NCBI GenBank assembly: GCA_026392115.1
Contig: JAPLCQ010000063.1
Span: forward strand, 1-47,396
DNA length: 47,396 bases
Direction: 5' to 3'
From: Armatimonadota bacterium
Lineage (GTDB): Bacteria; Armatimonadota; Chthonomonadetes; Chthonomonadales; CAJBBX01
The position numbers were made by a program, and so were the translations under genes. This document shows positions 1 through 40,699 of this stretch, in pieces (within the stretch, counting starts at the first letter, position 1; the number at the start of each line of letters is the position of its first letter). Below the pieces are notes generated by a model. The model had not been told where the DNA came from and ran no database searches. It saw only the letters and a program-made list of their open reading frames with translations.

Positions 1-288
1 GAGGTGAACGAGATGACCATGACCGGTGCAGAGGCCCTGCTGCGAGAGGGGCACAGGCTGGGCGTCGATGAAGGCCGACGGCTGGGTGTTGACGAGGGTC
101 GCCAGATCGGGGCCGACGAGGGGCGTCAGGAGGCGTTCAAGGCGCTGCTCACGCTGCAACTGGAGCGTCGGTTCGGTCCGCTGACCGAATCCCAGCGGAG
201 CAAGATCGCGGCCCTCACCGGCGAACAGGCGAGCCTGCTGGGCGTTCAGTTGCTCGACGCTCGCTCGCCGGCGGAGTTGGGCCTGTAG
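1..288 (+). CDS. C-terminal part of an Rpn-type nuclease (DUF4351-like), cut by the window edge
   Basis: The reading frame is open to the first base and ends at TAG 286-288, so only the last 95 residues are visible. The visible part has three 8-residue repeats (R/Q-L/I-G-V/A-D-E-G-R, bases 55-126) followed by a helical domain ending LLDARSPAELGL. The complete gene at 39722-40699 ends ILDARTLEELGLP and has a repeat block at the same place, so the two are paralogues. The family is known for PD-(D/E)XK nuclease N-termini (Rpn/PDDEXK_2); that domain would lie outside the window. An internal start at base 13 is listed separately. Confidence 0.7.
   Translation, partial: EVNEMTMTGAEALLREGHRLGVDEGRRLGVDEGRQIGADEGRQEAFKALLTLQLERRFGPLTESQRSKIAALTGEQASLLGVQLLDARSPAELGL
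13..288 (+). CDS. Nested in-frame C-terminal ORF (RpnS-like candidate)
   Basis: GAGGTGA at bases 1-7 lies five bases before ATG 13, a near-ideal ribosome binding site inside the longer gene. It would yield a 91-residue protein made only of the RLGVDEGR repeats and the C-terminal domain. The paralogue at 39722 has the same GAGGTGA-N5-ATG at the same position relative to its repeats. In characterised Rpn genes an internal start yields a small C-terminal protein that neutralises the full-length nuclease. That this ORF is translated is an inference from the site and its conservation. Confidence 0.5.
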   Translation: MTMTGAEALLREGHRLGVDEGRRLGVDEGRQIGADEGRQEAFKALLTLQLERRFGPLTESQRSKIAALTGEQASLLGVQLLDARSPAELGL

Positions 289-18875: not shown

Positions 18876-21419
18876 GTGGCAGACAAAGAGGCGAGCGCCC
18901 GGATTCGGATCAACCAGCGGCTGGAGGAGGCCGGCTGGCGCTTCTTTGACGGCGCCGACGGGCCCGCCAATGTGCGGCTCGAGGTGGGCGTCACCCTCAA
19001 GACCACCGACCTCGACGCCCTCGGCGAGGAGTTTGAGAAGAGCGCCAAGGGCTTCGTCGACTTCCTGTTGATGGACAGCCGCGGCTTCCCGCTCGTCGTG
19101 CTGGAGGCCAAGGCCCAGCACATCAACCCGCTCAACGGCAAGGAGCAGGCCCGGAAGTACGCGCGCTCCCAGAACTGCCCCTTCGTCATCCTCTCCAACG
19201 GCAACCTGCACTACTTCTGGGACCTCAGGCACGGTAACCCGCACCCCATCACCGCCTTCCCGCGGCCGGAGTCCGTCGTGGGGTACAGCAAGAGCGCCCC
19301 CGACCCGCGCAAGCTCGTCGACGAGCCCGTCGGCGATGACTACATCGCCCTCACCCAGATGCCAGGCTACCGCGCCGCGGCCGCCTGGACCAACGATGCG
19401 GAGCGGCCCGGGTTCATCGAGGCCAACAAGCTGCGCTTCCTGCGGCCCTACCAGATGCGGGCCGTCCACGCGGTGCAGAGCGCCGTGCGGGACCAGGCCG
19501 ACCGCTTCCTCTTCGAGATGGCGACCGGCACCGGCAAGACGCTCACCGCGGCCGCCGTCATCAAGCTCTTCCTCCGCACCGCCAACGCCCGCCGCGTCCT
19601 CTTCCTCGTCGACCGCGTCGAGCTGGAGATGCAGGCCGAGCGCAGCTTCAAGGCGCTCCTGCGAAACGACTTCAAGACCGTCATCTACAAGCAGAACCGC
19701 GACGACTGGAGCCACGCCGAGATCGTCGTTACCACCGTCCAGTCGCTGCTCGTGGGCGAGAAGTACCGGCGCCTCTTCTCGCCCACCGACTTCGACCTGG
19801 TCATCTCGGACGAGGCCCACCGCTCCATAGGGGGCGACGCGCGGGCGGTCTTCGACCACTTCATCGGGTACAAGCTGGGCCTCACCGCCACCCCGCGCGA
19901 CTACCTCAAGCGATCGGTCCGCTCCGACGGCGCCGGGACCGACCCGCGCGACCTCGAGCAGCGCATCCTCCTCGACACCTACCGCACCTTCGGCTGCGAG
20001 AGCAACGAGCCGACCTTCCGCTACTCGCTGCTCGACGGCGTCCGGGACGGGTACCTCGTGAACCCCACGGTGATCGACGCACGGACCGACGTGACCACCG
20101 CGCTCCTCTCCCAGCAGGGCTACATCATCCCCGTTTCCGAGGAGACGGGCGACGACGCCGAGACCGCCTACGGCAAGAGCGACTTCGAGAAGCGCTTCTT
20201 CTCCGACGCCACGAACAAGCTCTTCTGCAAGACCTTCATGAAGCACGCGCTCCGCGACCCCGTGAGCGGCGAGATCGGCAAGTCCATCATCTTCGCCGTC
20301 AGCCAGCCACACGCCACCAAGCTCACCCAGATCCTGAACCAGATGGCCGACGTTGCGTTCCCGGGCCTCTACCGCTCCGACTTCGCCGTCCAGGTCACCT
20401 CGCTCGTACCGGACGCGCCGAAGTTCACCACCGACTTCGCCTACAACAAGCTCATGGGTACGAGCGCCGTCATCCCCGGCTACAGCACGAGCAGGGCCCG
20501 CGTCTGCGTCACCGTCGGCCTGATGACCACCGGCTACGACTGCACCGACCTGCTGAACCTCGGGCTCTTCCGCCCCATCTTCTCGCCCACCGACTTCATC
20601 CAGATCAAGGGGCGGGGCACGCGCAAGCACGACTTCAGGAGGGACGTGACGGACCCGGACCTGGCCGAGGCCATCGCCGAGCCCCAGAAGCTGACGTTCA
20701 AGCTCTTCGACTTCTTCGCCAACTGCCGCTACTTCGAGGAGGAGTTCAAGTACGACGAGGTGATCGCCCTGCCGCCCCAGCCCACCGGCGGCGGCGGCGA
20801 CGGCCCCACCCCGCCCAAGCCTTACCCGCCGGAGGGCGCCTACATCCACGAGGGCGACGACCACCTCGCCGGCGTCACCGAGCAGGCCATCGGGCTGAAG
20901 GGCATGAAGATCGACCGCATGTTCTTCGACAGCTTCGAGGAGACCGTCCAGCAGGACCCAGTCCTGGTGCGGGCCGTGGAGGATGACCGCTGGGAGCAGG
21001 CCGAGGAGCACGTCCGCCGCAACGTCTTCGGCAAGCCCCACTCCTTCTTCAACCTGGACAAGCTCCGCAGGGCGGCTGGCGTCGACCGGCGGCTGACGCT
21101 CCGCGAGATTCTGGAGAAGGCCTTCGGGCGCATACCCGGCTTCAAGACGCGGGACCAGATGCTGGAGGAGACCTTCGACCGCTTCGTCGCCGAGGCCCAG
21201 CCCGACGATCCGGCCGCCGTGCCCGCCATCCGCGACTTCTTCAAGGCCTACTGCACCGACCCGACCGTCCGCGACGCCGTCGACAAGGGCGCCTTCACCG
21301 CACTCGCCACCAACCCGGTCTTCCCGCTGGCCGCCATGGACAGGGTGCCTCGGCGCTTCCGCAAGGAGGTGCCCGACTATGTCAAGGACTACGTCTCGCT
21401 GAACCAGTTCGCATTGTGA
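18876..21419 (+). CDS. hsdR: Type I restriction enzyme R subunit
   Basis: The protein has 847 residues from GTG 18876, with GGGAGG seven bases upstream. The HSDR_N nuclease motif is Asp62...Glu77-Ala-Lys79 (VDFLLMD...VLEAKAQ). The SF2 translocase follows: Walker A ATGTGKT (216-222), DEAH box Asp312-His315, TATP motif III and GRGTRKHD motif VI. The C-terminus (KEVPDYVKDYVSLNQF) fits the EcoEI-type R domain that docks on the methylase. The protein would cut unmodified DNA after ATP-driven translocation together with the HsdM-HsdS fusion encoded downstream. All motifs appear intact. It is the first gene of a tightly packed defence operon. Confidence 0.93.
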   Translation: MADKEASARIRINQRLEEAGWRFFDGADGPANVRLEVGVTLKTTDLDALGEEFEKSAKGFVDFLLMDSRGFPLVVLEAKAQHINPLNGKEQARKYARSQNCPFVILSNGNLHYFWDLRHGNPHPITAFPRPESVVGYSKSAPDPRKLVDEPVGDDYIALTQMPGYRAAAAWTNDAERPGFIEANKLRFLRPYQMRAVHAVQSAVRDQADRFLFEMATGTGKTLTAAAVIKLFLRTANARRVLFLVDRVELEMQAERSFKALLRNDFKTVIYKQNRDDWSHAEIVVTTVQSLLVGEKYRRLFSPTDFDLVISDEAHRSIGGDARAVFDHFIGYKLGLTATPRDYLKRSVRSDGAGTDPRDLEQRILLDTYRTFGCESNEPTFRYSLLDGVRDGYLVNPTVIDARTDVTTALLSQQGYIIPVSEETGDDAETAYGKSDFEKRFFSDATNKLFCKTFMKHALRDPVSGEIGKSIIFAVSQPHATKLTQILNQMADVAFPGLYRSDFAVQVTSLVPDAPKFTTDFAYNKLMGTSAVIPGYSTSRARVCVTVGLMTTGYDCTDLLNLGLFRPIFSPTDFIQIKGRGTRKHDFRRDVTDPDLAEAIAEPQKLTFKLFDFFANCRYFEEEFKYDEVIALPPQPTGGGGDGPTPPKPYPPEGAYIHEGDDHLAGVTEQAIGLKGMKIDRMFFDSFEETVQQDPVLVRAVEDDRWEQAEEHVRRNVFGKPHSFFNLDKLRRAAGVDRRLTLREILEKAFGRIPGFKTRDQMLEETFDRFVAEAQPDDPAAVPAIRDFFKAYCTDPTVRDAVDKGAFTALATNPVFPLAAMDRVPRRFRKEVPDYVKDYVSLNQFAL

Positions 21420-21427
21420 CGGGGACC

Positions 21428-22097
21428 ATGACAAGGCTCAGGCCCAGCGGCGGGTACCGCGCCACGGCGGGTTTCCAGACGACGACCCTGATCTACGACG
21501 CGACCTGGTGGTTCTGCGAGCGGTTCCTGGATTCCCGGTCGCGCACCGTCGACCAGATGGTCCAGGCGGCCCGGTCGGGCCGGCAGAACATCGCCGAAGG
21601 AAGCCGCGCCGCCGCCACATCGTCCCAGACGGAGCTGCGGCTGCTCAATGTCGCCCGCGCCAGCCTCGAGGAGCTGCTGCTCGACTACGAGGACTTCCTG
21701 CGCCACCGCCGCCTCTCGCAGTGGGCCGCCGACAGCCCCGAGGCGCGCACGATCCGCGAGGGTCCCCGGCGGTTCCGCCAAGCCGCCACGCACGATCCCG
21801 GCCGTCCGCGCCAACGCCGTGATCTGCCTCATCCACCAGGCCAACTACCTGCTCGACCGGCAGATCGCCGCGCTGGAACGGGCGTTCATCGAGGGCGGCG
21901 GGTACAGCGAACAGCTCGCCGCCGCCCGGCTGGCCGAGCGCGAAAAGAGCCGGAGCGGCGGGGCCGGCCAGATTCCCTCGTGCCCGCAGTGCGGCAGGCC
22001 CATGGTGGCCCGCACCGCCCGGCAGGGGCGCAACGAAGGCAGGCCGTTCTGGGGATGCTCCGGCTACCCCGAGTGCAAAGGCATCGTGGAGAACTAA
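21428..22097 (+). pseudogene. Four-helix-bundle suffix / zinc-ribbon protein, frameshifted
   Basis: From ATG 21428 the frame reads LRPSGGYR, then DQMVQAARSGRQNIAEGSR and SLEELLLDYEDFLRHRRL, the four-helix-bundle suffix family related to rRNA-intervening-sequence proteins. Between about 21757 and 21800 the frame shifts by +1 and continues as NAVICLIHQANYLLDRQIAALE, ending in a four-cysteine topoisomerase-type zinc ribbon (CPQCGRPM...CSGYPEC). One indel therefore splits an otherwise recognisable protein of about 220 residues; a CCCC run at 21764-21767 is one possible site. It sits eight bases after hsdR and four before hsdMS, a position where such genes recur. A sequencing or assembly error is possible. 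Confidence 0.75.
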
Positions 22098-22101
22098 CGC
22101 C

Positions 22102-24624
22102 ATGCTCGACACCGATACCAAGCGACGCATCGATACCGCACGGGACATCCTGGTCGGCAAAGTGCCGGACCCGAAGAGCCAGGTCGAGCAGATCACCATC
22201 GCGCTCATCTACAAGTTCATGGACGACATGGACGCCCAGAGCGAGGAGTACGGCGGCAGGCGCACCTTCTTCGCCGGCGAGTTCGAGCGGTACGGCTGGC
22301 CCAAGCTGATGCGCGCGGGGCTGGGCGGGCACGACACGCTGAACCTCTATGCCGAGGCCATCGCGAAGATGCCCGAGAACCCCGGCATCCCGCTCCTCTT
22401 CCGCGAGATCTTCAAGAACGCCTACCTGCCGTACCGCGACCCGGCGACCCTCCGCGCCTTCCTGAAGACCATCGACGAGTTCACGTACGACCACAGCGAG
22501 CGGCTGGGCGACGCCTTCGAGTACCTGCTCTCGGTCCTTGGCTCGCAGGGCGACGCGGGCCAGTTCCGCACCCCGCGGCACATCATCGACTTCATGGTGG
22601 AGGTGGTGGACCCCAAGAAGGACGAGACGGTGCTGGACCCGGCTTGCGGCACGGCGGGCTTCCTCATCTCGGCCTACAAGCATATCCGCAAGGCACACAG
22701 CGGCGAAGGCGCCGTCCCGCTCACGCCCGACGAGAACGGCGCCCTCGCCCGCAACTTCACCGGCTACGACATCTCGCCGGACATGGTCCGCATCTCCCTC
22801 GTCAACCTCTACCTGCACGGCTTCGTCGACCCGCACATCCACGAGTACGACACCCTGACGAGCCAGGAGCGCTGGAACGAGGTGGCGGACATCATCCTGG
22901 CCAATCCGCCGTTCATGTCGCCCAAGGGGGGCATCCGCCCACACGACCGCTTCTCGGTGCAGTCCAAGCGGAGCGAGGTGCTCTTTGTGGACTACATGGC
23001 GGAGCACCTGACGGCCCGGGGCCGCGCCGCCATCATCGTGCCGGAGGGGATCATCTTCCAGAGCCAGGGCGCCTACACGCGACTCCGCAAGATGCTGGTG
23101 GAGGAGTACCTGGTGGCGGTGGTCTCGCTACCCGCCGGCGTCTTCAACCCCTACTCGGGTGTGAAGACGTCGATCCTGGTCCTGGACAAGGCCCTGGCCC
23201 GCCGGGCCGACACCATCGCCTTCCTGAAGGTGGAGAACGACGGCTTCGGGCTGGGCGCCCAGCGCCGCGAGATCGAGAAGAACGACTTGCCGACGGCGGC
23301 GGCCGAACTGGCCGAGTACCTGCGCCGGCTACGCGAGGGCGAGCCAGTCAAGGAGACGCCGACCACGCTGGGCCACGTGGTGGAGAAGTCCCGGGTGGCC
23401 GCCGGCGGCGACTACAACCTGAGCGGCGAGAGGTACCGGGAAGCGGCGACGAGCGGCGGTGTCTACCCCTTGGTGCAACTCAGCGAGGTATGCGACGTGA
23501 ACCCGCGCGACAGGATCGAGCTCGGTCTACCGGTCGGTACGGAGGTTTCGTTCCTTCCAATGGCGGACCTGGGCACGCAGAGCGCGGTGTGTACCGCGAG
23601 GCAGACCCGGCCGATCGGCGAGTTGGCCGCGAGCTACACCAGCTTCCGAGACGGCGATGTCCTTCTGGCCAAGGTTACTCCCTGCTTCGAGAACGGCAAG
23701 GCAGGGATCATGCAGGGGCTCACGCACGGCTGCGGGTTTGGTTCTAGCGAGTTCTATGTGCTTCGGGCATCCGACCGACTGGAACGCGGTTGGTTGTACC
23801 GGTGCGTTACGCGGGAGGCCTTCAGGACAGCCGCAGTGCCACAGATGACGGGAACCGGGGGGCTGCAGCGGGTACCGAGGCAGTTCGTCGAGACCTACCG
23901 CATCCCCCTCCCGCCGCTCGACGTCCAGCGGGCAATCGTTGCGGAGATCGAGGGCTACCAGAAGGTGATCGACGGGGCGCGGGCCGTGGTGGAGAACTAC
24001 CGCCCACACATCGTGGTGGATGCGGCGTGGCCGATGGTGGCGATTGCAGCGATCGCCGATGTCCAAGGCGGCGTTCAGAAGACGCCGAGTCGGCAGCCCA
24101 AGGTTAGCCACCGGCCATACCTGACCGTGCGAAACGTGCAGCGCGGCTGTCTGGATCTATCCCAAGTCGAACGCTTTGAGGTAAGTGACACCGAACTCCA
24201 GCGGCTTAGGCTGCGAGTTGGCGACATCCTCGTGGTCGAGGGCAATGGCAGCCGTGATCAGATTGGCCGCACCGCACTCTTTGACATTTGCGGTGAGGAA
24301 TGGGTGCACCAAAACCATATTATACGGGTCCGCCTCGATCGCCAGCGAGCAGTTCCGTCCTTTGTGGAGGTCTTCCTGAACAGCGACCAAGGCCGGCACC
24401 AGATGCTGAGTACGGCAGTGACGACGAGTGGTCTGTACATGCTGAGCGCCGGGAGAGTCGGTTCACTGGAGGTACCACTTCCGTCGCTCGAAACGCAGCA
24501 GTCGATTGTTGCGGAGATCGAGGCCGAGCAGGCGCTGGTGGCGGCGAGCCGGGAGTTGATCGCGCGGTTCGAGAAGAAGATCGAGGGCGTGCTGGCGAGG
24601 GTTTGGGGGGAGGGTGTACCATAG
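22102..24624 (+). CDS. hsdMS: Type I methyltransferase-specificity fusion (HsdM-HsdS)
   Basis: The protein has 840 residues. Residues 1-453 are HsdM: an N-terminal helical domain, AdoMet motif I DPACGTAGFL (179-188), catalytic NPPF (268-271) for N6-adenine methylation and a C-terminal DYNLSGERYR. HsdS follows in the same chain with two target recognition domains: TRD1 from YPLVQLSEV (about 455) to RIPLPPLDVQRAIVAEIEGY, and TRD2 from WPMVAIAAIADV (643) to VPLPSLETQQSIVAEIEAEQ. Separate hsdM and hsdS genes are usual. The TRD2-coding part (about 24040-24480) is visibly richer in A/T, as expected for exchangeable specificity segments. It pairs with hsdR upstream and precedes the AAA gene by 20 bases. 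Confidence 0.9.
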   Translation: MLDTDTKRRIDTARDILVGKVPDPKSQVEQITIALIYKFMDDMDAQSEEYGGRRTFFAGEFERYGWPKLMRAGLGGHDTLNLYAEAIAKMPENPGIPLLFREIFKNAYLPYRDPATLRAFLKTIDEFTYDHSERLGDAFEYLLSVLGSQGDAGQFRTPRHIIDFMVEVVDPKKDETVLDPACGTAGFLISAYKHIRKAHSGEGAVPLTPDENGALARNFTGYDISPDMVRISLVNLYLHGFVDPHIHEYDTLTSQERWNEVADIILANPPFMSPKGGIRPHDRFSVQSKRSEVLFVDYMAEHLTARGRAAIIVPEGIIFQSQGAYTRLRKMLVEEYLVAVVSLPAGVFNPYSGVKTSILVLDKALARRADTIAFLKVENDGFGLGAQRREIEKNDLPTAAAELAEYLRRLREGEPVKETPTTLGHVVEKSRVAAGGDYNLSGERYREAATSGGVYPLVQLSEVCDVNPRDRIELGLPVGTEVSFLPMADLGTQSAVCTARQTRPIGELAASYTSFRDGDVLLAKVTPCFENGKAGIMQGLTHGCGFGSSEFYVLRASDRLERGWLYRCVTREAFRTAAVPQMTGTGGLQRVPRQFVETYRIPLPPLDVQRAIVAEIEGYQKVIDGARAVVENYRPHIVVDAAWPMVAIAAIADVQGGVQKTPSRQPKVSHRPYLTVRNVQRGCLDLSQVERFEVSDTELQRLRLRVGDILVVEGNGSRDQIGRTALFDICGEEWVHQNHIIRVRLDRQRAVPSFVEVFLNSDQGRHQMLSTAVTTSGLYMLSAGRVGSLEVPLPSLETQQSIVAEIEAEQALVAASRELIARFEKKIEGVLARVWGEGVP

Positions 24625-24644
24625 TGCGTGTGAGGTGACCCACC

Positions 24645-25748
24645 ATGCGCATCAGCGCTATCCATACCCGCGGTGTCGGACCGTTGGGCACGCAGGATCT
24701 GGCGTTCCGCAGCGACTGGAGCGGCGAGATCGCCCCCACCATCCTCTTTAGTGGGCCCAACGGCTGCGGCAAGTCCACGCTACTCCGCGGCGTGGCTATG
24801 CTCTGGCGCGCCCTGGGGCAATGGATGCAGACGGCCAGGCCGATCCCGCATACCAGATCGGAACTGGCGGACCTACGCCGGTGGGCCGGCTTGGCGTTGG
24901 TCTTGGAGCAGACGCCCGCGGGCGAGGGGCCCACGGTTGTCTTCGTGGGCGACGCGGCGTTCGAGGACGAACTGAGAGGGAAGTACCCATCGGCTCGACT
25001 CATTGGCGAGTGTCGGTCGCCGGCCGGCGTGACAGCCTCTGGCTTCTCACCGGCAGACACTCTGTTGTCGGCGGCGACTGCGACGGCAACGCGTCGGTTC
25101 CGTGTGGAACCCGACAGCCATTGGACGACCGAGTGGGCGGATGCCCGGCGGCGCATGCTGGTCAGTTGGGCGCACGCGACCTCGCCCAACATGGTCCATC
25201 TCGATGCTGAGGAGCGGCGCTGGGTTGCCGCCACGCGAGGCGCCGGCGAGATTCTGGCCGACAGCTCCGAGCGCAGGTGGCTGCCGACATACTCACCGAC
25301 GGAGTCTTGGAACGGCCAACTGGAGCAGTCGCTGCTGGCCCTGAAGGCGGCCGCCCCGGGGCAGTTCCGCGCCTTGCTGGTGCACATGAACGACTTCCTC
25401 GTTTCCAAGCAGATCAGCGGCAGCATCATCCCCGGCGAGAACCGGCTTCGTGTCCGCCTTGGCGGAAGGCCAAAGTCCGCTCACCTTCTGGACAGTCTCA
25501 GCTCCGGCGAGCATCAGGTGCTCATCCAGCTCTATATGGTGGGCCGCTGGCTGGAGCCCGGCGGCGTGGTCCTGATCGACGAGCCTGATCTGCACCTGCA
25601 CCCGTCGCTCATTCCAGGCTTTCTGGCAAGGCTGGAGCAGATGGTCGCAGACCGTGACGGTCAGCTGCTCCTCACGTCGCATGTGCCGCAGATATGGGAC
25701 CGATATGAGGCACGAGGGCTTCGCGTTGCGCTTGGTGTGCAACCGTGA
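24645..25748 (+). CDS. ABC/SMC-type AAA ATPase of a defence pair (AriA/RloA/OLD-like)
   Basis: The protein has 367 residues. Walker A GPNGCGKST (37-45), ABC-type signature LSSGEHQ (about 285-291), Walker B VVLIDEPDLHLHP (Asp312-Glu313) and H-loop TSH (344-346) are all present, so it should be an active SMC/ABC-type ATPase. The insert between Walker A and the signature is about 240 residues and lacks a long coiled coil. Its stop overlaps the start of a TOPRIM-domain gene by four bases (GTGA). AAA plus TOPRIM pairs include PARIS (AriA/AriB), RloA/RloB, Gabija and class 2 OLD systems; the short length and location behind type I R-M best fit PARIS or RloAB relatives. Confidence 0.75.
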   Translation: MRISAIHTRGVGPLGTQDLAFRSDWSGEIAPTILFSGPNGCGKSTLLRGVAMLWRALGQWMQTARPIPHTRSELADLRRWAGLALVLEQTPAGEGPTVVFVGDAAFEDELRGKYPSARLIGECRSPAGVTASGFSPADTLLSAATATATRRFRVEPDSHWTTEWADARRRMLVSWAHATSPNMVHLDAEERRWVAATRGAGEILADSSERRWLPTYSPTESWNGQLEQSLLALKAAAPGQFRALLVHMNDFLVSKQISGSIIPGENRLRVRLGGRPKSAHLLDSLSSGEHQVLIQLYMVGRWLEPGGVVLIDEPDLHLHPSLIPGFLARLEQMVADRDGQLLLTSHVPQIWDRYEARGLRVALGVQP

Positions 25749-26572
25749 CGGTCGAGGAGCGGATCAGGCAGATCGAGGAGCAGCTTGTCGGCTCACAGCC
25801 AAAGCAGGTCCTCCTTGTTGAGGGGACGAACGACGTCGAGGCCTATCGGCTTCTGCTTGAGCGGCATCGACCCAGCTCCGCCGGCAGCGTGGCCGTCGCT
25901 GAGGCTGGCGGCAAACGAGAGGTCTGCCAAATCCTGAAGGCGCGGCCTGGCTGGGTCGGCCTGCTGGACCATGACGAGTGGGGCGATGCCCGGGCCCAGG
26001 CGGCGCTGACGAAGCACCCGAACCTTCGGCTGCTACCCCGGTACTGCCTTGAAAGCTATCTCATACACCCGGGAGAGCTGTGGCGGGCGCTGCCCCCGGC
26101 CCAGCAGAGCAGAATCCAGGGCGGCGATGAAACACTTGCGTCGGCACTGCTCAACGACCTGGATCGGTACCTGCGGCACGGCGCCCTATGGCATACGGTG
26201 CGACCGCTGTGGGACGTGCTCATGGACCTCGACTTCACGAATGCCCTGGCCTCGGCGCGCAGCGTGGACGCAGCGCAAAATGACGACGCGATCAAGGCCA
26301 CGCTTGCCGGCTGGCAGGCCGCCCTGGACCCGGATTCGGCGTTTGGCGCGTTCCAGCGCAACCTGGCTTCGGCTCAGGCGGCGCCGCTCGATGAGCAACT
26401 GGCGAACTGGGTCCACGGCAAGGTCTTCTTCAACCAGCATGTGTGCGCGGCTCTTAACAAGCATCTTGGGCAGAGGGGCGCCGAGAAGCGTCGTACCGAA
26501 CTGCTGAGGAGCCTGCCGATCGCCCCAGACCTCGCTGCTTTGTTCGAGGATGTCCTAGCCCTGGCCCGGTAG
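25745..26572 (+). CDS. TOPRIM/DUF4435-like nuclease partner (AriB/RloB-like)
   Basis: The protein has 275 residues from GTG 25745, overlapping the ATPase gene by four bases, so translation is coupled. The TOPRIM acid is Glu26 in VLLVEGTNDVEAY and the DxD pair is Asp75/Asp77 in GLLDHDEWG. RYCLESYLIHP (99-109) is the ordered motif that follows TOPRIM in DUF4435/OLD-type proteins. The remaining 150 residues are helical. In known pairs the ATPase senses phage factors and the TOPRIM protein cuts RNA or DNA, stopping growth. The target here cannot be read from sequence. RloB (often embedded in hsd loci) is the main alternative to AriB. Confidence 0.65.
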   Translation: MTVEERIRQIEEQLVGSQPKQVLLVEGTNDVEAYRLLLERHRPSSAGSVAVAEAGGKREVCQILKARPGWVGLLDHDEWGDARAQAALTKHPNLRLLPRYCLESYLIHPGELWRALPPAQQSRIQGGDETLASALLNDLDRYLRHGALWHTVRPLWDVLMDLDFTNALASARSVDAAQNDDAIKATLAGWQAALDPDSAFGAFQRNLASAQAAPLDEQLANWVHGKVFFNQHVCAALNKHLGQRGAEKRRTELLRSLPIAPDLAALFEDVLALAR

Positions 26573-39649: not shown

Positions 39650-39721
39650 CTATCCCCGTGTCGCGGTCCTGTGGGTACACTGGTCCTGTAGACATGGCCC
39701 GTTCCTTAAGCGGAGGTTCCG

Positions 39722-40699
39722 ATGCCTCATGATCAGCTTTGGAAACAGCTGCTCGAGGCCTTCTTCCGGGAGTTCATGGAGCTCTTCCTCCCGGACGTGG
39801 CCCGCGACATCGACTTCGACAGCGTCAAGCCGCTCGGCGCCGAGGTGTTCACCGACCTGCCCAAGGGCAGGTTGCGCCGGCCCGACTTCCTGGTCGAGGT
39901 CCGCACGCGGGAGGGCCGAGCGGAGATCGTCCTGATCCACGTCGAGGTGCAGGCACGGCGCCGCAAGAACGTGCCCGCGCGGATGTTCGACTACTACTGC
40001 CTGCTGCGGCTCCGGCGCGACCTGCCCGTCCTGCCGGTGGTAGTCTATCTGCAACCCGGCACAGGGGGCATCACCCATGAGCGCTTCACGGCCGGCCTAT
40101 GGGGCCGCGAGACGCTGCGGTTCGAGTACGACGCCCTTGGCCTGCCGGACCTGTCCGCCGAGGAGTACCTGGCCAACCCATCGGCCCTGGCGCCCGCGCT
40201 CAGCGCGCTGATGCGGGCGCCCGGCATGGACCGCGTGGTGCGGACCTTCCGCGCCTTGGAGCGCGTGGCGAAGACCGATGTCGATGAGGCGCGGCGCCAC
40301 CTGCTGGCCTACGTTGTCGACCACTACATGAAGCTCACCGAGGAGGAGGCCGAGGAACTCCAGAGCCTCACCGACACGTCTGAAGCAACGGAGGTGAAGC
40401 AGATGATACTCTCCTTCCATACACGCGTCCACGAGCAAGCCCTGCAGCAGGGTCTGAGCCAGGGCCTGAGCCAGGGCTTGACCCAAGGCCTGAGCACGGG
40501 CATGACCCATGGCGAGCAGGCCGTGCTCCTGCGGCTCATGCGCCGCCGCTTCGGCGCCCTCGACCCGAAGGTCGTCGCCCGCGTCGAGGCCATCCAGGAC
40601 ACCGACCAGCTCGAAGCCCTGGCCGACCGCATTCTGGACGCTCGCACGCTTGAGGAGCTGGGACTGCCGAATCCCGATGGTCCTGCCGCCACCGCCTGA
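39722..40699 (+). CDS. Rpn-type PD-(D/E)XK nuclease with DUF4351-like C-terminus
   Basis: The protein has 325 residues. The nuclease core reads RRPDFLVEV (Asp55) and IVLIHVEVQAR (Glu75, Gln77), followed by MFDYYCLLRLRRDLPVLPVVVYL, the PDDEXK_2/Rpn pattern. After a helical middle, four Q-G-L-S/T repeats (243-258) lead to a C-terminal helical domain (LLRLMRRRFGALDPKVVARVEAI...ILDARTLEELGLP). Known Rpn proteins are DNA endonucleases formerly called transposases, some with antiphage activity restrained by an internally started C-terminal protein. The gene has its own upstream region with GGAGG nine bases before the ATG. A paralogue's end occupies bases 1-288. Confidence 0.82.
   Translation: MPHDQLWKQLLEAFFREFMELFLPDVARDIDFDSVKPLGAEVFTDLPKGRLRRPDFLVEVRTREGRAEIVLIHVEVQARRRKNVPARMFDYYCLLRLRRDLPVLPVVVYLQPGTGGITHERFTAGLWGRETLRFEYDALGLPDLSAEEYLANPSALAPALSALMRAPGMDRVVRTFRALERVAKTDVDEARRHLLAYVVDHYMKLTEEEAEELQSLTDTSEATEVKQMILSFHTRVHEQALQQGLSQGLSQGLTQGLSTGMTHGEQAVLLRLMRRRFGALDPKVVARVEAIQDTDQLEALADRILDARTLEELGLPNPDGPAATA
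40403..40699 (+). CDS. Nested in-frame C-terminal ORF (RpnS-like candidate)
   Basis: GGAGGTGA (40390-40397) is five bases before ATG 40403, codon 228 of the nuclease. This is a stronger ribosome binding site than most true starts in the window. The product would have 98 residues: MILSFHTRVHEQALQ, the QGLS repeats and the C-terminal domain, but no nuclease. The same arrangement occurs in the paralogue at base 13. By analogy with intragenic rpnS antitoxins it could bind and inhibit the full-length protein; expression is not shown by sequence alone. Confidence 0.55.
   Translation: MILSFHTRVHEQALQQGLSQGLSQGLTQGLSTGMTHGEQAVLLRLMRRRFGALDPKVVARVEAIQDTDQLEALADRILDARTLEELGLPNPDGPAATA
40448..40495 (+). 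repeat. Four 12-bp tandem units encoding QGLS
   Basis: CAGGGTCTGAGC, CAGGGCCTGAGC, CAGGGCTTGACC and CAAGGCCTGAGC in frame. The paralogue has instead three 24-bp units encoding RLGVDEGR at the same position (55-126). In-frame repeat number could change by slippage without breaking the protein. Confidence 0.85.

What the first reader, a model, noticed from the sequence alone, without database searches (positions are those of the whole stretch)
40390..40699. Intragenic antitoxin-like start inside an Rpn-type nuclease, conserved in a paralogue
GGAGGTGA with a 5-base spacer precedes ATG codon 228, exactly before the QGLS repeats and C-terminal domain. The partial paralogue at base 1 has GAGGTGA-N5-ATG at the matching position before different repeats (RLGVDEGR). 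Spacing and placement are kept although the flanking codons (KQ versus NE) and repeats differ. Intragenic rpnS antitoxins with variable repeats are established for enterobacterial Rpn proteins; here a distant, DUF4351-type lineage appears to use the same layout. If real, each gene is a self-contained nuclease plus inhibitor, and repeat divergence could keep paralogues from cross-neutralising.
Basis: partly seen in the sequence, partly recalled or inferred. Interest (0 to 1): 0.82.

Follow-up and report, generated by a model that had tools for sequence, protein, structure and literature searches.

The report
Internal start of Rpn nuclease inhibitor
This bacterial DNA-cutting gene carries, inside its own reading frame, a second start signal for a short end-piece that probably restrains the full-length toxin; the arrangement was already known in E. 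coli Rpn genes, and here selection on silent sites shows that the same arrangement is kept in distant, uncultured lake bacteria and in cyanobacteria.

Summary
In detail: GGAGGTGA (40390-40397), 5 bases, then ATG (40403, codon 228) opens a 98-residue in-frame C-terminal ORF. The host is an uncultured Chthonomonas (Armatimonadota). In this one gene the Shine-Dalgarno (SD) is not special given its amino acids (synonymous percentile about 0.11). Across relatives it is. At 23 non-redundant ATG sites in the phylum the SD beats synonymous recoding (mean percentile 0.19, 21 of 23 below 0.5). Controls are flat: other ATGs 0.48, SD-capable contexts without a start 0.53. Cyanobacterial DUF4351 Rpn genes show the same (12 of 12), and the five E. 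coli rpn starts, known experimentally, behave likewise. In three genera a tandem stand-alone copy of the C-terminal module begins 20-40 nt upstream of the start, just before the SD. Lineages that lost this Met carry another SD-ATG 12-15 codons upstream. The predicted fold is a PD-(D/E)XK nuclease plus a long helix and two short ones, like published RpnL/RpnS. This is a new member of a known kind: an RpnL toxin with an intragenic RpnS antitoxin. Internal initiation is well supported by sequence. The antitoxin function is inferred from E. coli, not tested here. The paper reporting RpnS already connected DUF4351 with it.

The parts
39712..39716 (+). GGAGG, Shine-Dalgarno of the long form (5 nt before ATG 39722)
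   Evidence: sequence
39722..40699 (+). Long form, RpnL-like: PD-(D/E)XK (Rpn) nuclease + helical linker + repeats + DUF4351, 325 aa
   Evidence: TIGR01784 E=5e-7 and PF14261 E=2e-10; AlphaFold2 mean pLDDT 91; hhalign to E. coli RpnA-C,E prob 94.6, E=7e-8 over residues 1-93
39884..39952 (+). Catalytic motif D55 ... E75-V-Q77 (D...ExQ form of PD-(D/E)XK), aligned with D63, E82, Q84 of E. coli RpnA
   Evidence: D55 invariant and E75 at least 90% conserved in 35 homologues; alignment with RpnA
40390..40397 (+). Internal Shine-Dalgarno GGAGGTGA
   Evidence: selected above codon expectation across homologues
40403..40405 (+). Internal start codon ATG (codon 228)
40403..40699 (+). Short form, RpnS-like putative antitoxin, 98 aa: long helix with repeats, then two short helices (DUF4351)
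   Evidence: AF2 helices 223-277, 282-290, 294-306 of the full-length model; three tandem stand-alone copies of this module in relatives
40448..40513 (+). 12-bp repeats encoding QGLS units (5.5 copies); number varies among close orthologues
   Evidence: TRF; alignment A2
40499..40660 (+). DUF4351 domain (PF14261), residues 260-313
1..288 (+). C-terminal part of another Rpn gene (E. coli-like subfamily) cut by the contig end; GAGGTGA 1-7, ATG 13-15, RLGVDEGR octads, DUF4351
   Evidence: longer copies L014, L016, L104

Best explanation
The locus is an Rpn toxin-antitoxin gene of the RpnL/RpnS kind. Ribosomes start at 39722 to make a 325-residue PD-(D/E)XK nuclease (RpnL) and independently at 40403 to make a 98-residue C-terminal protein (RpnS). 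By analogy with E. coli, the short form pairs with the same helix-plus-repeat module of the long form and holds the nuclease inactive, and phage infection or another stress releases it. Shown here: the internal SD-start is maintained by selection beyond its codons across two phyla, and the C-terminal module also occurs as stand-alone genes that begin at this start. Inferred: toxicity of the long form, inhibition by the short form, phage defence, and repeat-dependent specificity.
For: Codon-level test: 23 non-redundant ATG sites, mean percentile 0.19, Stouffer z -5.2, Wilcoxon p 1.4e-4; 212 other in-frame ATGs of the same genes 0.478; sites without a start codon 0.46 (n=6). SD-capable amino-acid contexts not followed by a start: 2451 positions, mean 0.53, versus sites 0.20 (Mann-Whitney p 1.7e-9). 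Effects are strongest where GAG is rare: G027 (GAG 34%) has AAGGAGG-N8-ATG and GGGGAGGTAAGGACT-ATG at percentiles 0.02 and 0.007. The Met is replaced by other start codons: TTG behind the 11-nt AAGGAGGTGAT in L047, GTG behind AGGAGGT in L122. In other families the start sits two codons earlier and the SD has moved with it; ATG sites in that register have mean percentile 0.19 (n=10). Cyanobacteria: 12/12 below 0.5, z -3.9. E. coli rpnA-E, starts known experimentally: percentiles 0.105, 0.10, 0.04, 0.03, 0.015. Tandem stand-alone copies in three genera start 20-40 nt upstream of the start, so the SD is included. Two Trp lineages and one Tyr lineage carry AGGAGG(T)-ATG 12-15 codons upstream. Fold; nuclease homology.
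Against: No expression data. In this gene alone the SD is within codon expectation. No 16S rRNA is in the MAG, so the anti-SD was assumed. Group B copies of this genome have only a weak SD (L009 percentile 0.95). Some lineages lack the Met. Profile similarity of the short form to E. coli RpnS alone is weak (hhalign prob 59).
Confidence: 0.78

Rival explanations
1. The SD-ATG is a by-product of a conserved protein motif (E-V-x-x-M at the start of an amphipathic helix) in a GC-rich genome; no short protein is made.
For: GAG 83% and GTG 46% in this genome; this gene's percentile is only 0.11; the E-V motif persists in homologues with Trp or Ile in place of Met; amino acids alone give many strong SDs in the linker (9.7 of 48 clusters expected at 7 nt or more).
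Against: Observed 18 of 48; codon-level excess only where a start follows; same excess in low-GC genomes and cyanobacteria; start-to-start codon replacements, register shift with SD, relocated SD-ATG, stand-alone copies beginning at the SD.
Confidence: 0.1
2. A short C-terminal protein is made but is not an inhibitor: it is a structural partner of the nuclease (as Cas11d is for Cas10d), needed for assembly or DNA binding.
For: All evidence for internal initiation fits equally; the module is a predicted helix likely to oligomerise.
Against: Homologous E. coli short forms block cleavage in vitro and relieve toxicity (PMC10327210); the layout, 4-residue repeats and domain order are the same.
Confidence: 0.12
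3. The internal start is a remnant: the long forms are decaying and only the C-terminal module is kept, for example as protection against incoming Rpn toxins.
For: In sister species G002 the 93-95% identical orthologue has a TAG at codon 9 while the short ORF is intact; several copies are fragmentary.
Against: Many copies have full-length frames with the catalytic D...ExQ; D55 invariant in 35 homologues.
Confidence: 0.05

Closest known systems
RpnL/RpnS of E. coli (rpnA-E, plasmid rpnP2) and a C. difficile rpn gene; Zhong et al. 2023, PMC10327210; RpnAS structure PDB 7TH0
   Same: Nuclease N-terminus with D...ExQ, internal SD-ATG in frame before 4-residue repeats, C-terminal helical module that is long helix plus short helices, repeat number variable among close relatives, stand-alone copy just downstream in some genomes (rpnE-ypaA versus L022, L051, L113). 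The E. coli start Met aligns with the start Met of cyanobacterial and other Armatimonadota homologues.
   Different: C-terminal module is a recognisable DUF4351 (PF14261); nuclease domain is a distant branch (PF04754 below its cut-off); in the window's own subfamily the SD is GAGGTGA with Met two codons later than the E. coli register; nothing has been tested experimentally.
Stand-alone DUF4351 proteins described by Zhong et al. as RpnS encoded as a separate gene
   Same: Same Pfam family as the short form here
   Different: Here the domain is fused to the nuclease and is inferred to be made from an internal start
Cas10d/Cas11d of type I-D CRISPR (internal start within cas10d)
   Same: In-frame internal start giving a C-terminal product from one gene
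   Different: Complementary subunit, not an inhibitor; unrelated proteins

Membership tests
RpnL/RpnS intragenic toxin-antitoxin | N-terminal PD-(D/E)XK nuclease of the Rpn / Transposase_31 family | tested here: met
   TIGR01784 E=5e-7 (below its cut-off), PF04754 17.7 bits against cut-off 21; hhalign to E. coli Rpn prob 94.6, E=7e-8 with D, E, Q aligned; fold matches to PD-(D/E)XK nucleases, best Z 8.7. Family profiles alone are sub-threshold; profile-profile and fold carry this.
RpnL/RpnS intragenic toxin-antitoxin | In-frame internal SD and start codon before the C-terminal domain | tested here: met
   Present and conserved above codon expectation in homologues
RpnL/RpnS intragenic toxin-antitoxin | Four-residue repeats of variable number beginning 8-20 residues after the internal Met | tested here: met
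   QGLS units begin 15 residues after Met 228; repeat number differs among close orthologues L001, L018, L019, L020
RpnL/RpnS intragenic toxin-antitoxin | Short form folds as a bundle of one long and two shorter helices and dimerises through the long helix | tested here: inconclusive
   Full-length AF2 model gives helices 223-277, 282-290, 294-306; the isolated short-form model is only pLDDT 73 and found no PDB match; dimerisation not modelled
RpnL/RpnS intragenic toxin-antitoxin | Short protein is actually translated | not testable with these tools
   No profiling or proteomic data for this organism
RpnL/RpnS intragenic toxin-antitoxin | Long form toxic or DNA-cleaving; short form blocks it | not testable with these tools
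   Needs expression and assay
RpnL/RpnS intragenic toxin-antitoxin | Anti-phage activity | not testable with these tools
   Type I restriction and AriAB-like genes lie 13-21 kb upstream in the window, which is suggestive only

The most novel reading that the evidence does not exclude
The internal start of Rpn genes is an ancient, separately selected element that turns over like a binding site (register shift, relocation 12-15 codons upstream, ATG to TTG or GTG) while the C-terminal product is retained. Single Armatimonadota genomes would then carry a dozen or more such cassettes kept mutually specific mainly by repeat number: four related copies here have 1, 2, 3 and 4 octads.
Probability: 0.35. 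Interest if true: 0.62.

Novelty: new member of a known kind. Interest (0 to 1): 0.47.

Why it matters
Experimental evidence for RpnS covered E. coli and one C. difficile gene. The codon-level evidence here indicates that the internal start is under selection in Armatimonadota and Cyanobacteria too, including the DUF4351 branch. That would make DUF4351, an uncharacterised domain, a likely antitoxin module, and would mean that annotated 'Rpn family nuclease / DUF4351' genes usually encode two proteins. The test (synonymous SD percentile against matched contexts) can be applied to any suspected gene-within-gene.

Tried and rejected
16S rRNA search for the anti-SD: none in the MAG. PDB sequence search: no true relative. 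Foldseek and VIA with the full model list only nuclease domains for residues 1-144; 7TH0 was not among the Foldseek matches of the short-form model, which has pLDDT 73 and is mostly one helix, so this is not evidence against. Internal sigma-70-like promoter: none on the + strand, not informative for this phylum. RNA folding around the start: no unusual structure (z 0.7). A scan of the whole linker without fixing the site gives a weaker excess (18 observed against 9.7 expected clusters with SD of 7 nt or more; 1 against 0.7 in control regions), because Glu-rich linkers make SDs easily; I rely on the aligned-site test. Literature: the 2023 preprint was the only relevant RpnS paper found in the held library.

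Full report
WHAT WAS CLAIMED AND WHAT IS THERE. The window is one whole contig of a 5.7 Mb MAG whose nearest named relatives are uncultured Chthonomonas MAGs, Armatimonadota. ORF 39722-40699 encodes 325 aa: an Rpn-like N-terminus and a C-terminal DUF4351. The short ORF is 98 aa. QGLS repeats, a 12-bp array, begin 15 residues after this Met. The base-1 copy has GAGGTGA-N5-ATG. It is truncated by the contig end and belongs to another Rpn subfamily, as the longer copy L014 shows (PF04754 E=4e-25).

THE GENE ALONE IS NOT PROOF. In 96 genes of this genome, 1 of 915 internal in-frame ATGs has an 8-nt SD and 6 have at least 7 nt. But the residues before the Met almost dictate the SD in a genome with GAG 83% and GTG 46%, and the synonymous percentile of this site is only about 0.11.

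COMPARATIVE TEST. I collected Rpn/DUF4351 genes from the own genome, two sister species, the class and the phylum (sequences). All close orthologues keep ACR-GAG-GTG-AAG-CRG-ATG. For each aligned site, the SD:anti-SD duplex energy was compared with synonymous recodings using that genome's codon usage in these genes. At 23 non-redundant ATG sites the mean percentile is 0.19 and 21 lie below 0.5 (Stouffer z -5.2; Wilcoxon p 1.4e-4). 212 other ATGs of the same genes average 0.478, and six aligned sites without a start codon 0.46. Against 2451 SD-capable contexts not followed by a start (mean 0.53), the 25 start sites differ with p 1.7e-9. The excess is largest in low-GC genomes, where codon usage works against GAG. 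Genes from one genome are not fully independent, so the p-values are indicative.

TURNOVER THAT KEEPS A START. L047 has Leu, but as TTG, behind an 11-nt SD; L122 has Val as GTG. In other families the Met sits two codons earlier and the SD has moved with it. Lineages with Trp (genomes G005, G006) or Tyr (G029) at the site carry AGGAGG(T)-ATG 12-15 codons upstream; L052 (Ile) has a weaker GGAGG-ATG 6 codons upstream.

NATURAL EXPERIMENTS. Three genomes in different genera (L022, L051, L113) carry, 52-134 nt behind the full gene, a second stand-alone copy of the C-terminal module. In each, similarity to the first gene begins 20-40 nt upstream of the start codon, just far enough to include the SD. 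E. coli rpnE-ypaA has the same arrangement: the sequence after rpnE reads AAAAGGAGAGATTAATG.

OTHER PHYLA AND POSITIVE CONTROL. DUF4351 Rpn genes on cyanobacterial plasmids show the same excess: 12 of 12 below 0.5, mean 0.16, z -3.9, with GAG as low as 17%. The five E. coli rpn genes, whose internal starts are known from profiling and tagging (PMC10327210), give 0.015 to 0.105. An alignment puts the E. coli start Met and the cyanobacterial/Armatimonadota start Met in one column.

PROTEIN. The AF2 model has mean pLDDT 91. Residues 1-144 match PD-(D/E)XK nucleases (NucS/EndoMS, Z 8.7; McrC, Can2, Card1 near Z 7; Z of this size is only suggestive on its own). Profile comparison with E. coli Rpn aligns D55, E75, Q77 with D63, E82, Q84. 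A helix runs from 223 to 277, so the short form would start with it, followed by helices 282-290 and 294-306. This fits the published description of RpnAS, a long first helix that takes the repeats plus two more helices.

MECHANISM. Best reading: two starts, one frame. The long form is a nuclease toxin; the short form binds the identical module of the long form and inhibits it. Internal initiation is supported here by sequence evolution. Inhibition is inferred from E. coli. The repeat-specificity idea rests on the published one-repeat experiment with RpnC. In this genome four related copies have 1, 2, 3 and 4 octads (L104, L014, the base-1 copy, L016), which fits but is not a test.

KNOWN OR NEW. 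Zhong et al. reported the intragenic antitoxin, its presence beyond E. coli, four-residue repeats, downstream copies, and DUF4351 as an annotation of RpnS. So this is a new member of a known kind. What is added is codon-level evidence in two phyla and the start turnover.

Noticed in passing
window 18876-26572: Type I restriction-modification genes (HsdR-like 18876-21419; fused methylase-specificity 22102-24624) followed by an AriA-like AAA ATPase (24645-25748) and an AriB-like protein (25745-26572), suggesting a PARIS-type system beside type I RM.
   Followed up: partly
L018 (sister species G002), orthologue of 39722-40699: The 93-95% identical orthologue has TAG at codon 9 of the long form while the short ORF with its SD-ATG is intact and has fewer QGLS repeats: a possible toxin-dead, antitoxin-kept state.
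   Followed up: partly
window 1-288, L104, L014, L016: Four related copies of one Rpn subfamily in the same genome carry 3, 1, 2 and 4 RLGVDEGR-type octads respectively.
   Followed up: partly
L160, Synechocystis sp. PCC 6714 plasmid pSYLA: A DUF4351 Rpn gene with an internal SD-ATG lies within a BREX locus, right behind brxC and upstream of pglX, next to a VapC/Phd-type pair.
   Followed up: no
contig ends in G000: C27 base 1, C84, C50, C3, C138: Several contigs of the MAG break inside Rpn genes, so multi-copy Rpn genes probably fragment the assembly and the true copy number is uncertain.
   Followed up: no
L009-L012 (group B copies): These have a conserved TMQYM or NMKYM Met but a weak SD (L009 percentile 0.95), with GGAGCGAGGTG further upstream; their internal start, if any, is unclear.
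   Followed up: no
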